Made by a program: the position numbers and the translations under genes. The notes beneath the pieces are model-generated. The model saw only the letters and a program-made list of their open reading frames with translations, was not told the origin of the DNA and did no database searches. From assembly GCA_003116995.1 (NCBI GenBank), contig BDSL01000037.1, forward strand, positions 434,001-498,000: a stretch of DNA of 64,000 bases, read 5' to 3'. Below are positions 50,833-57,245 of this stretch, piece after piece. Numbering within the stretch: position 1 is the stretch's first letter; every line of letters begins with the position of its first letter. The stretch comes from Yamagishiella unicocca (taxonomy: Eukaryota; Chlorophyta; Chlorophyceae; Chlamydomonadales; Volvocaceae).

Positions 50833-53648
50833 ATGGCAGCAGCTGATCGTCTAGGCAACGGCATCGCGCCGCGCCGCGCGGGCCCGCCGCCCCGCCGCCT
50901 CATCACCCGGGCGCAACGCGCCAATGCCCCCTTCTCCTCTCTGGCCCTGGTAGCTGCTGTCACCACCTTCGCCGTGACCGTGTCCTTCCTGCAGCAGCTC
51001 CCTCTGGCTGGTGAGTGGGTGGGTGGGTGCGTTTTTTTTGTGCCCGATCGTGCCATAACCAAAGAAGTCTCAACCTTTCGGAGGGGAGGACAGGAAGGGA
51101 GCAAAGGACCGGTCGGGGGTATTACGGACACCTCGCGACAGCCATCTAGAACATGGGCCATACGCCAGGCAGCTGCATCGAAGTTGGCGTCAAGGAGTTC
51201 GGGGTCCGGTCAGGACAGGAGGAGGTCGAGGCAGGCTGACGGGGGCTGCAAGCGAGGGGGTCAGGGATTCCAGGGACGCTCCCTCTTCCTAGCCGCAGTC
51301 ACTTCGAGGAACTTGTTGTGCGAGTTGGCGAGGTGACCCATGGGTCTCGCTGTAAGTGAGGCGGTCGAGGGCCGACAACGCATGCGTTGCTGCAGCCGCG
51401 CGACCCACGGGGCGGCAGTGCGCGACCCTACCCAGCGACAAGCAGCAGTTCCAAGCTGCTTCCAGAACTTCGATCCGTTGAGCCACCACCCTCCTAATCG
51501 ATCGAGTCGCCCTCCTCCTGTCCGTCCTCTACCGTCCTCGCATGCAGGTGCCGCAAGGAGCCTCCACAGCAGCGTCGATAGTTCCAAAGTCTTCTCCAGT
51601 GGTGCGTGTGCATCGAACCCTGGGCGACCTGGCACTTAGTTTGTTTTCCCGGCACGTGCAGCCTGCCGTACATGCACCTCTCTGCATACGCGCTTTCCTT
51701 AAGGACACCCTCGTTCAGCAACGAACCCGACGTGGCGCAGTCTACCGTTTCCCTCGCTGCCTTATGCGACAGCGGCGCCGTGGAGCGCCCGGAGGTCCTA
51801 CACACAACTGCGATGGAAAAGAGGAAACGCAGAAGAAGGATACAGAGTAGAAAGAGATAATGCATGCATATTTTCTGCTTTAGAGAAGCGGTGCAACGAC
51901 GATGAACATCCCTCTTGCGCGCTCACTGCGGCTAGACAACTCAACCAAAGCCGCGTTCACCTGATCCACATGCTCGTGCCACACCCTAGCTTAAAATCCA
52001 TCCATCCAACCCCAGATCACTCAATATCACCATCTGCATGCATGCCGCTCTCAGTTGCTGTCCTCAGCAGTCCGCTGCTGCTACGACGCTGTTCGCTCAC
52101 ACCTCCATCGCTGCGCAGTGCTGCTGCTCCTCCACAAGCCCCCAACCGCCTTTCCCCCTCGCTCCGTCCCCCCCGGACCCCGCCATGCATGCTCGCTCCC
52201 CCAACCCAGGCAGCGCCGTCAACGTGGCCGTGCCCTCGGTCGGCGTCAACGTCGACGTCAAGGGCCAGCAGCAGAGCGGCGGCGGCGGCGGCGCCGCTGG
52301 CAGCGGCGCCGCTGCGACCACTTCAAGTGGCTCCGCCGGCAGCGGCGTCCAGGTACGGGCGCCGTACACCAGTGTGTCAGTAGGTGGCGGCGGCAGTGGC
52401 GGCGGCGGCAGTGGCGGCGGCGGCGGCGGCGGTGGCAGCTCCGGCAGCGGCCCCTCGGGTGGCTCTTCCGCCGGGGGTGGCGGTGGTAACGCCAACGCCA
52501 GCAGCGGTGTCCAGGTCCGGGCGCCGTACACGACTGTGTCTGTTGGCGGCGGCGGCGGCTCTGGCGGCGGCTCTGGCGGCGGCTCTGGCGGTGGCGCCGG
52601 CGGCGGCGGCAGCTCTGGCGGCGGTTCTGGTGGTGGCTCCAGTGGTTCTGCTGCCAATGCCAGCAGCGCTGCCAATGTGCAGGTTCGAGCGCCGTACACG
52701 ACTGTGTCAACCGGCGGCGGCGGCGGTGGCGGCTCCGGCGCCGGTACTTCCGGCAGCAGCTCCAGCAGCGGTGTGGAGGTCCGGGCGCCCTTCACCAGCG
52801 TATCAGTCGGCGGCAGCGGCGGCTCCGGCTCTTCGGGCTCTGGTGCATCATCCTCCGGCGGCAGCGGCGGCGGCGGCGGCGGCTCCAGCGGCGGTGTGCA
52901 GGTCCGGGCGCCCTTCACCAGCGTATCGGTTGGGTCAGCTGGCAGCCAGGTACGCTCGTACGGCAGTGCGGGGTACGGCGGCGAGGGTGATGGTGGGATA
53001 CGGCGGGGTACGGCAGGCACTGGAGCGGCAGCGACCGGGGGCCCGGGAACGGTGGGGTCGGGGCCGGGGTGGGGCGGGTTTGGGGGGGGGCAGCAGGAGG
53101 CGCCCGGCATTTACCACCGGTAGCAGCACAACATCACTGTCCTTGCTTTGTAGCAGCACAACACCACTGTCCTTGCTTTGCATCCTTGCACTGTGCAGCT
53201 CCGTCCATCCTAGGGCTCCTTGTTGCTGCTGAGACCCTGGGGTCAGGGTCAGGGTCAGGGTTTTCTTTGTAAACCCTGGCGCACCCCACCACACTCGCTT
53301 TCTCTGTCGTACACGGGTCCTCCTTGCAACCACACTCGCTCCTCCTCTACCCCGACTCGCTACGCCCCAATCGCGTCGACCCGGCCACCTTGACACCCTC
53401 CCCCTCCGGCCCCCGGTTTTCCCCCCACTTCTCCCACTCCGCAACCCACCCCTCAACCCACCCCTCAACCCCGCCCTCTGGCGGCTCGCAGTCGTCCGAC
53501 GGCAAGGGGCACGGCAGGTCGGTCGGTTGCCAAACTGGGCTGTTCGACGGTTGGCAGTTGGCGGTCGGTGGTTGAGATAAAGGAAAATACCCGCGGAGGA
53601 AGGATGCATGCGTGCGCCGCGTTGACCCCTGCAGCGGCGACAACAGCT

Positions 53649-53696
<48 letters not shown>

Positions 53697-56600: not shown

Positions 56601-57245
56601 TATTCGGTCCATTCGCCCCGGCAGCCCGACTTGGCGCCTGCGTGCTTTTGTCCGACTACCAACCATCTGCAGGTGCTCCGTCGTCCTCGACCAACCTCCA
56701 GCCGTCCTCCTTTTCACCCCCCCTGCAAGCCTGCACCTCCCACCCTCATCCTTTTCACCTTCCTTGCAAGCCTGCACCTCGCCCCTCATCATTTTCGCCT
56801 CCCCTGCACGCCTGCTGCCTGCTGTCCGCAGGTCCAGGTGGACAACAGCTACGCGGACGTCAATGTCGACAAGAGGGACGGCAGGTGGGCAGCCCGGGGA
56901 GGCCCCCGGAGCAGGGGGGAAGGGGGGGGGGTTGAGGTTGGGGGCTTCAGCGAGCACCGGGAATGCTGAGTACGGACACGCACCCAATCCCAATCCTTGG
57001 GATTGACCCATACCGCATCAGGAACTGGAGAAGCTGTTGGATGGTGGGTGCAAAAGCCATCGTGCGACGCGTTTCCGCGTCCCCAAGCCCACACCGTTGT
57101 CTGCGTGCGTTGTTTTCCAGCCAACCAGGCCCCCCCTCCCCTCCTTCCCTCCTTCACCCCCCGATACCGTTTCCCTGTGCGCAGTGGCTGTGTCGACGTG
57201 CCTGTCGCCGGCACCATCAACTGGGGCAAGGGCTGCAAGAAGTAG
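50833..57245 (+). CDS. S4: modular secreted protein with alternating exons
   Basis: Eleven exons: 50833-51010, 51548-51601, 52210-52949, 53492-53517, 53902-53977, 54548-54597, 55112-55289, 55502-55554, 56055-56310, 56832-56884 and 57185-57245. All phases close and give 574 aa. Residues 34-53 form a signal peptide or anchor. Exon 3 is a Gly/Ser-rich region with VNVAVPSVGVNVDVKG and five copies of VRAP(Y/F)T(S/T)VSVG. Exons 4-11 then alternate. Even exons are short: NTGYATVGVGKSG, VVRNAYADVKVDKTTG and VQVDNSYADVNVDKRDG; exon 4 is degenerate. Odd exons start SGCVTLPGIGVIGWSGGCRR, SGFVSVPVGGVNVGWGRRSR, SGCVKVPGWANVAWGAGCRR or SGCVDVPVAGTINWGKGCKK. Exons 7 and 9 end NYPTTxVTAPxTxVQDT. The V-x-V alternation predicts beta-strands, and the paired cysteines suggest one disulphide per module. 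Exon 9 has six ASTPTP-type repeats. Family not recognised; extracellular location inferred. Exons 2 and 4 are the least certain. Confidence 0.78.
53638..53695 (+). repeat. CAG/GCA trinucleotide repeat in S4 intron 4
   Basis: About 15 uninterrupted GCA triplets, flanked by ACAACAGCT and GCGGCC. Confidence 0.95.
53985..54120 (+). repeat. GGCT/GGGT tetranucleotide repeat, G4-forming
   Basis: A GGCTGGCTGGGT array grades into at least 13 GGGT units (54058-54117) on the sense strand of S4 intron 5. Runs of GGG separated by one T are ideal for G-quadruplex formation in the transcript. Confidence 0.95.
54470..54505 (-). repeat. Dispersed repeat family 2 fragment in S4 intron 5
   Basis: CTGGATTCGCGGATTCTC then TTATCAACCCCCC, the reverse of the 39855-39895 copy. 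Confidence 0.6.
54755..54785 (+). repeat. Dispersed repeat family 2 fragment in S4 intron 6
   Basis: GGACCGGTAACTCGACTAGGG, close to the GGTAACTCGACATGGG words at 6915-6955. Confidence 0.55.
55450..55501 (+). repeat. 7-bp CCAACCG repeat at an S4 splice acceptor
   Basis: Six copies of CCAACCG/CAACCGC lead directly into the AG of S4 exon 8, replacing the usual pyrimidine tract. Confidence 0.9.
56345..56400 (+). repeat. Dispersed repeat family 1 fragment in S4 intron 9
   Basis: AACGTTACAGGGGGTTCCAG followed by ACCGAAAGTCAGAACTAG. Confidence 0.55.

What the first reader, a model, noticed from the sequence alone, without database searches (positions are those of the whole stretch)
50833..57245. 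S4: two exon types alternate under a strict phase rule
Exons 5, 7, 9 and 11 all start by completing a Ser codon (AG|C or AG|T) and carry G(C/F)V..P..G...W....(C)RR or KK. Exons 6, 8 and 10 start in phase 0 and end GGC AG. A pair is thus a symmetric 0-0 unit that can be copied freely, and four rounds are visible, the first with a shortened short exon. Hydrophobic residues alternate (V-x-V-x-V) in both exon types, which suggests a repetitive beta fold with one Cys pair per repeat. I do not recognise this architecture.
Basis: partly seen in the sequence, partly recalled or inferred. Interest (0 to 1): 0.8.

Follow-up and report, generated by a model that had tools for sequence, protein, structure and literature searches.

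The report
Algal secreted protein with paired-exon modules
An alga gene encodes a probably secreted protein in which a pair of small exons was copied several times without breaking the reading frame, each pair adding one short hairpin-like module that ends in a possible cutting site; the module is not in the family libraries searched, and what it does is unknown.

Summary
An 11-exon GT-AG model (574 aa, no internal stop) fits the coordinates. Its last eight exons alternate strictly: a short exon (0>2, ending GGCAG) and a long exon (2>0 or stop) that completes a Ser codon and carries SG(C/F)V.(V/L)P...W...RR/KK. Correction: a Cys pair is present in 3 of 4 rounds. New: two five-exon paralogs, B (window 23536-26600) and P (contig C163), each carry one short+long pair with the same phases and GGCAG end, and a broken relic lies on the minus strand at 47.28-47.09 kb. 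So the pair is an inherited unit, multiplied in this gene. The module matches no Pfam or NCBIfam family and no PDB sequence; three protein searches gave no credible relative, but volvocine coverage there is untested. The host looks volvocine (161 DUF3707 matches). Two low-confidence models make the long exon a beta-hairpin. All six Cys lie in modules; past the hydrophobic N-terminus four of five dibasic pairs end a module. Best reading: a secreted matrix/cell-wall protein of repeated hairpin modules. Serious rival: a multi-copy peptide precursor cut at those sites. No transcript or protein data.

The parts
50833..51010 (+). S4 exon 1: start codon, hydrophobic segment (residues 35-53), probable signal peptide or signal anchor; phase 0>1
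51548..51601 (+). S4 exon 2: linker GAARSLHSS..., phase 1>1 (paralog P has GAARGLRQL..., also 1>1)
52210..52949 (+). S4 exon 3: Gly/Ser-rich stretch with five V(Q/E)VRAP(Y/F)T(S/T)VS(V/T)G motifs; phase 1>0
53492..53517 (+). S4 exon 4: shortened short exon SSDGKGHG|, phase 0>2, ends GGCAG (assigned by position, phase and end only)
53902..53977 (+). S4 exon 5: long exon, round 1, SGCVTLPGIGVIGWSGGCRRSRSLQQ, phase 2>0
54548..54597 (+). S4 exon 6: short exon VDVNTGYATVGVGKSG|, phase 0>2, ends GGCAG
55112..55289 (+). S4 exon 7: long exon, round 2, SGFVSVPVGGVNVGWGRRSRQLL... (no Cys; Gly before RR), tail NYPTTIVTAPITSVQDT; phase 2>0
55502..55554 (+). S4 exon 8: short exon TVVRNAYADVKVDKTTG|, phase 0>2, ends GGCAG
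56055..56310 (+). S4 exon 9: long exon, round 3, SGCVKVPGWANVAWGAGCRRSRQLM..., Pro/Thr/Ala/Ser repeat, tail NYPTTTVTAPLTNVQDT; phase 2>0
56832..56884 (+). S4 exon 10: short exon VQVDNSYADVNVDKRDG|, phase 0>2, ends GGCAG; contains the KR before the last module
57185..57245 (+). S4 exon 11: long exon, round 4, SGCVDVPVAGTINWGKGCKK then stop
23536..26600 (+). Paralog B: 5 exons (23536-23716, 24272-24426, 24878-25594, 25800-25855, 26297-26600), 470 aa, one short+long pair (25800-25855 GVVVLNPAAQVGVSTTTG|; 26297-26600 SGGVNVPGVGRFCWLGGCRRALQQ...)
47087..47279 (-). Relic of a long exon (SGCVEVPG ... GGGRRSRSY) split by a short-repeat stretch with stop codons; the two halves score E 0.043 and 0.0019 apart; read as a broken copy

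Best explanation
The gene encodes a secreted (or signal-anchored) modular protein of a volvocine alga, most likely a component of the extracellular matrix or cell wall. A Gly/Ser-rich region with V.VRAP(Y/F)T.VS motifs is followed by four copies of a unit made by one short exon (V.V...Y..V.V) and one long exon (SGCV.VPG.G.I.W.GGCRR), two of them separated by Ser/Pro/Thr-rich linkers of the kind that volvocine cell-wall proteins glycosylate (recalled). The short+long pair is symmetric (phase 0-0) and was inherited from a single-pair, five-exon ancestor like paralogs B and P. Duplication of the pair with its introns added modules without shifting the frame; skipping one of exons 4-10 alone would shift it. 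Shown here: gene models, phases, paralogs, module similarity, dN below dS in most pairs. Inferred: secretion, disulfide-closed hairpin fold, matrix location.
For: Three separately built gene models (S4, B, P) are open throughout with GT-AG borders and put the same two exon types in the same phases. Module similarity beyond shuffles. A long-exon profile from this gene alone finds P (E 5.5e-11) and B (8.4e-4); one from P and B alone finds exons 5, 9 and 11 of S4 (2.7e-8, 1.8e-7, 1.3e-3) among 2185 open fragments. dN<dS in 13 of 15 long pairs (1 reversed, 1 undefined) and 9 of 10 short pairs (1 undefined), on 16-24 codons each. Introns of the three genes share only pieces of 18-39 nt. Hydrophobic N-terminal stretch in all three proteins; all six Cys of S4 and both of P lie in modules. 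Two models, from S4 exon 9 and from P, give the same strands 2-6 and 10-14. Pro/Thr/Ser repeat in exon 9. Host has 161 DUF3707 matches, counted exon by exon, with 150 of 183 candidates scored.
Against: No transcript, proteomic or localisation data. No matrix domain is detected. Structure models are low confidence (mean pLDDT 62.2 and 55.2, pTM 0.18 and 0.21) and cover one exon. Exon 7 lacks both Cys, and B has its first Cys elsewhere, so a fixed disulfide is not required. The P+B long profile does not list exon 7 among its 12 best, and the short profile from S4 alone scores B and P only at E 4.2 and 6.2. The dibasic end of the module (6 of 6 copies) has no obvious role in a structural module. 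TGTAA, the volvocine polyadenylation signal (recalled), occurs once after each of S4 and B, no more than chance (expected 1.01 and 1.04), so it gives no support. The N-terminus could be a signal anchor.
Confidence: 0.5

Rival explanations
1. The protein is a multi-copy peptide precursor. Each exon pair encodes one roughly 16-20 residue, mostly Cys-closed hairpin peptide that is released by a prohormone-convertase-like protease at the dibasic site after it; the basic residues are then trimmed and, in round 2 (W-G-RR), the end could be amidated. Copying the symmetric exon pair changes the dose or variety of peptide.
For: After the hydrophobic N-terminus S4 has five dibasic pairs: four directly end a module (351, 391, 470, 573) and the fifth (551) lies just before the last module; outside the modules 435 residues hold 22 K/R and one dibasic pair. 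The dibasic pair is kept in 6 of 6 copies (4 in S4, 1 in B, 1 in P), better than the standard Cys pair (4 of 6). S4 stops directly after KK. Criteria for such precursors in C. reinhardtii (signal peptide, paired basic sites, no known domain, often several copies) are in PMC6313938 (abstract, passages and section 3.6 seen); an amidated chemotactic gamete peptide is in PMC6919629 (passages seen). The amidating-enzyme domain PF01082 is in this genome, 2 of 3 matches over the cut-off.
Against: PMC6313938 reports that 756 of 771 soluble secretory proteins carry such basic sites, so the sites alone mean little, and that the six hydroxyproline-rich wall proteins seen appeared intact while 7 of 11 pherophorins were cut. 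Shuffling S4 gives five or more dibasic pairs in 3.3% of trials. No basic pair precedes the modules in P or B. The six copies are homologous, so conservation of RR is not six independent events. B has further dibasic pairs elsewhere.
Confidence: 0.28
2. A fast-decaying orphan gene family with little present function: S4 is one of several decaying copies.
For: A neighbouring minus-strand copy is broken, exon 4 is shortened, exon 7 lacks Cys, and relatives outside this genome were not found.
Against: S4, B and P are open over 574, 470 and 209 codons with correct splice sites; dN<dS in 13 of 15 long and 9 of 10 short pairs; phases and GGCAG ends are kept.
Confidence: 0.12
3. The exon model is partly wrong: some short exons are not spliced in, and the apparent phase rule comes from choosing splice sites.
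For: No RNA evidence; short exons are 26-53 nt in S4 and low in information; I chose the borders by eye; the S4-only short profile does not significantly find the paralogous short exons.
Against: The scan recovers exons 6, 8, 10 and the B exon and few others; P and B repeat the arrangement; skipping any one of them breaks the frame.
Confidence: 0.06

Closest known systems
Pherophorins / volvocine hydroxyproline-rich cell-wall glycoproteins (DUF3707, PF12499; that DUF3707 is the pherophorin domain is recalled)
   Same: N-terminal hydrophobic segment, Pro/Thr/Ser-rich spacer, Cys-bearing modules, several related genes, host lineage
   Different: No DUF3707 match in S4, B or P; modules of about 20 residues with at most one Cys pair, from an exon pair
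C. reinhardtii candidate peptide precursors (Luxmi et al. 2018, PMC6313938; GATI-amide precursor, PMC6919629)
   Same: Signal-peptide-like start, paired basic sites, repeated similar segments, no recognised domain; the GATI precursor also belongs to a family with a gene cluster
   Different: The GATI-amide peptide as shown has no Cys and is unlike these modules; cleavage of S4 is untested
Animal extracellular proteins built by duplication of symmetric exons (recalled; not searched)
   Same: Frame-neutral symmetric unit multiplied in a modular extracellular protein
   Different: Here the symmetric unit is a pair of two different exons (0>2, 2>0), in a green alga, with an undescribed module

Membership tests
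Pherophorin (DUF3707) | Match to PF12499 | tested here: not met
   Pfam scans of full S4, full P and full B: no match to it
Volvocine hydroxyproline-rich glycoprotein | Pro-rich (S/T-P) repeat segment | tested here: met
   Exon 9: 18-bp repeat encoding PASTPT, 5.2 copies; one segment only
Volvocine hydroxyproline-rich glycoprotein | Hydroxylated, glycosylated protein in the wall | not testable with these tools
   No protein data
Neuropeptide-like precursor (criteria of PMC6313938) | Several similar segments with paired basic cleavage sites | tested here: met
   A dibasic pair ends 4 of 4 modules in S4, and the one of P and of B; a pair before the module exists only for the last one of S4
Neuropeptide-like precursor (criteria of PMC6313938) | No recognised domain | tested here: met
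Neuropeptide-like precursor (criteria of PMC6313938) | Signal peptide and no transmembrane helix | tested here: inconclusive
   Hydrophobic stretch at residues 35-53; no signal-peptide predictor at hand; long n-region
Neuropeptide-like precursor (criteria of PMC6313938) | Amidation site G(K/R)(K/R) | tested here: inconclusive
   Present in round 2 (W-G-RR, exon 7) only; the other three modules end Cys-RR/KK
Neuropeptide-like precursor (criteria of PMC6313938) | Cleavage actually happens | not testable with these tools
   No peptidomic data
Symmetric-exon module family | Unit with equal phases at both ends, in varying copy number among paralogs | tested here: met
   Pair 0-0: 4 rounds in S4 (the first with a shortened short exon), 1 in B, 1 in P; the last pair of each gene ends at the stop

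The most novel reading that the evidence does not exclude
A volvocine family of multi-copy precursors for disulfide-closed hairpin peptides, in which one symmetric pair of exons encodes one peptide, so that exon-pair duplication tunes how many and which peptides are made; paralog P would add a second layer, with 21 in-frame repeated splice donors before the first stop (33 in all) that could lengthen its short exon in steps of eight residues.
Probability: 0.22. Interest if true: 0.75.

Novelty: new variant of a known kind. Interest (0 to 1): 0.47.

Why it matters
Frame-neutral duplication of symmetric exons is classically linked to animal extracellular proteins (recalled). A clear case in a volvocine alga, with a two-exon symmetric unit, single-copy relatives in the same genome and a module not in the libraries searched, offers a small system for studying how modular extracellular proteins arise in the group used to study the origin of multicellularity. 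If the modules are released as peptides, it would also give candidates for signals between algal cells.

Tried and rejected
Protein-database searches: residues 325-574 of S4 gave 14 hits at E<=10, best 2.0e-4, with only the 7991 candidates sharing most words scored. I read the two best (P0001, P0002); both share the TPTPAS-type repeat and were set aside as low complexity; the other 12 were not read. Residues 330-480 gave none of 926 candidates; P residues 100-160 none of 3. Whether that database holds volvocine proteomes was not tested, so absence elsewhere is not shown. Viral contigs: 98 pattern stretches, no relative. PDB: for S4 residues 307-476 only 5zi1 at E 0.97, rejected; none for P or the long-exon profile. 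NCBIfam: none for S4 residues 307-476, P, and the first 217 residues of B. Pfam: four sub-threshold chance rows (E 1.5-4) for an S4 piece and one for part of B (E 0.33); full B none.

Idea that the short exon derives from the V.VRAPYT.VSV motif of exon 3: 3 of 35 comparisons at p<=0.01, 7 of 35 at p<=0.03. Suggestive for exons 6 and 10, not established. A joined piece of exon 3 found only S4 itself and one row at E 0.22 (4 matches); a piece of B found B itself and 11 rows at E 0.02 or worse (13 matches). Idea that all rounds are recent copies: rejected. Exon 5 is closer to P (71% aa) than to the other rounds (50-58%); only exons 7 and 9 are closer to each other (cores 71% aa, tails 14 of 17 aa and 41 of 51 nt). 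A note of mine says dN<dS in 14 of 15 long pairs; one search shows 13 of 15.

Pattern for the long-exon start: 18 places in the genome against 7 for the reversed control. I translated 14 of the 18 (the other 4 are the S4 exons): 2 continue as modules (B, P), 1 is the relic, 11 do not. Pattern for GCRRSR: 4 matches against 5 in the control; three of the four, translated, show no module, the fourth is S4 exon 9. Family counts in this genome are lower bounds. Organism: 133,378,104 bases in 1415 contigs is near, not equal to, Yamagishiella unicocca plus (134,234,618 bp, 1461 contigs; PMC6123790, passages seen); identity not claimed. Literature searches showed no description of this module in the rows listed (titles and abstract starts only, apart from the three papers named).
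Full report
What is there. The region 50833-57245 (+) holds a coherent 11-exon gene model. Splicing at GT-AG borders gives 1725 nt and 574 codons without an internal stop. Exon lengths are 178, 54, 740, 26, 76, 50, 178, 53, 256, 53 and 61 nt. Intron phases are 1, 1, 0, 2, 0, 2, 0, 2, 0, 2. Short exons 4, 6, 8 and 10 start in phase 0 and end GGCAG; long exons 5, 7, 9 and 11 complete the Ser codon. Losing any one of exons 4-10 shifts the frame; losing an adjacent short-long pair among exons 4-9 does not. GC at third positions is 0.71-1.00 in the exons.

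Is it more than chance. Long exons are alike beyond shuffles in 14 of 15 pairs (p<=0.003; the exception, S4 exon 7 against B, has p=0.053), counting four in this gene and one each in B and P. Short exons are alike in 7 of 10 pairs at p<=0.03; exon 4 was left out as too short. A scan for any open AG|44-65 nt|GT stretch ending GGCAG with length 2 mod 3 yields 8 candidates on the window's + strand. The 4 with a V.V...V.V pattern are exons 6, 8, 10 and the short exon of B; the minus strand has 2 candidates, none with the pattern; L021 has 29 on its minus strand, inflated by a repeat, one with the pattern.

Relatives. A search of the host genome with a 99-residue piece gave 19 matches at E<=10; those at E<=1e-3 are four stretches of this gene and one on contig C163, gene P. 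A DNA pattern for the start of the long exon then led to a copy at window 26294, gene B. Both are five-exon genes with the same ground plan: hydrophobic start, linker, Gly-rich exon ending in phase 0, one short exon 0>2 ending GGCAG, one long exon starting on the Ser codon. B is 470 aa, P 209 aa. They differ in detail: exon 2 is 1>1 in S4 and P but 1>0 in B. A long-exon profile built only from this gene finds P at E 5.5e-11 and B at 8.4e-4; one from P and B finds exons 5, 9 and 11 at 2.7e-8, 1.8e-7 and 1.3e-3, and does not list exon 7 among its best 12. The short exon is weaker: the profile from this gene alone scores B and P at E 4.2 and 6.2 only, and the P+B profile finds only exon 8 (E 0.013). 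A further copy, on the minus strand at 47279-47087, is split by a short-repeat stretch with stops (halves at E 0.043 and 0.0019); it sits in what looks like a divergent neighbour with its own hydrophobic start near 49.74 kb.

History. The single-pair genes B and P show that the pair and its phases were not made by the expansion in S4. Long exon 5 is closer to P (71% aa) than to the other rounds of its own gene (50-58%), and introns of the three genes share only pieces of 18-39 nt. Most of the multiplication is therefore not recent. Exons 7 and 9 are the closest pair within the gene (cores 71% aa; tails 14 of 17 aa and 41 of 51 nt), so one copying step may be younger. dN is below dS in 13 of 15 long pairs (one reversed, one undefined) and in 9 of 10 short pairs (one undefined); with 16-24 codons each these are rough.

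What the module looks like. The long exon reads S-G-C-V-x-V-P-G-x-G-x-I-x-W-x-G-G-C-R-R. S, G, V4, P and W are invariant in 6 of 6 copies. Two AlphaFold runs on contiguous single exons (exon 9; the long exon of P), each with the same six sequences, give strands 2-6 and 10-14, a hairpin about the P-G turn, at low confidence: mean pLDDT 62.2 and 55.2, pTM 0.18 and 0.21. That the two Cys form a disulfide is inference. Exon 7 has neither Cys, and B has its first Cys before the W. I ran no fold search on such models, since matches would mean nothing.

What it may do. The host looks volvocine: DUF3707, the pherophorin domain (recalled), has 161 exon-wise matches in the genome and rings in none of 14 control genomes. 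The plain reading is a secreted matrix or cell-wall protein: hydrophobic start, Gly/Ser-rich and Pro/Thr-rich linkers, repeated Cys-bearing modules. A rival deserves a test. After the N-terminal hydrophobic stretch the protein has five dibasic pairs; four end the four modules and the fifth precedes the last. The pair is kept in 6 of 6 copies, the standard Cys pair in 4 of 6. Luxmi et al. 2018 (PMC6313938; abstract, passages and section 3.6 seen) list such features for peptide precursors in C. reinhardtii and report that 7 of 11 pherophorins in the mating secretome were cleaved. They also report that six hydroxyproline-rich wall proteins appeared intact and that 756 of 771 soluble secretory proteins have basic sites of that broad kind, so the sites alone prove nothing. 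Shuffled S4 reaches five dibasic pairs in 3.3% of trials. The amidating-enzyme domain is present in this genome (2 of 3 matches over the cut-off). I give the matrix reading 0.5 and the precursor reading 0.28.

Known or not. Pfam, NCBIfam and PDB sequence searches found no relative of the module (in NCBIfam the module of B was not scanned). Three searches of a large protein collection gave nothing credible, but whether that collection holds volvocine proteomes was not tested. So 'undescribed module' is supported for the libraries named; 'unique to this species' is not. The rows listed by the literature searches gave no description.

Verdict. It is a new variant of a known kind: frame-neutral duplication of a symmetric unit in a probably extracellular protein, here a two-exon unit with an undescribed module in a green alga.

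Noticed in passing
L021 (G000:C163:91001-101000), minus strand, about 5318-4545: In paralog P the end of the short exon and its splice donor are amplified as a 24-bp minisatellite: 33 copies of GGCAG|GT, every one 24 bp from the next and so in frame (VDQ(S/N)MGRW units); 21 of the 33 donors come before the first in-frame stop, and any of them would keep the frame.
   Followed up: partly
window about 20.3-22.2 kb (+) and 28.2-29.6 kb (+): Two further probable genes (outlined by eye) with hydrophobic starts and Gly/Pro-rich bodies (motifs SRRLLQ and SRKLLQ) flank paralog B; the profiles find no module in them. The window looks like a cluster of related secreted-protein genes.
   Followed up: partly
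window 49739-47087 (-): Probable divergent, decayed neighbour of S4: hydrophobic start MRIIMFSAG..., KRSLLE motif near 48.46 kb, and a broken long exon. About 1.1 kb separates the two start codons (by eye).
   Followed up: partly
window 62663-63895 (+): Coiled-coil-like protein gene (MAETEPAAEFQPERNERSNEP...) near the window end; reminds of BFR1-like proteins (recalled, not tested; open frames).
   Followed up: no
window 53986-54119 and 53644-53695: GGGT and CAG simple repeats inside introns 5 and 4 of S4.
   Followed up: no
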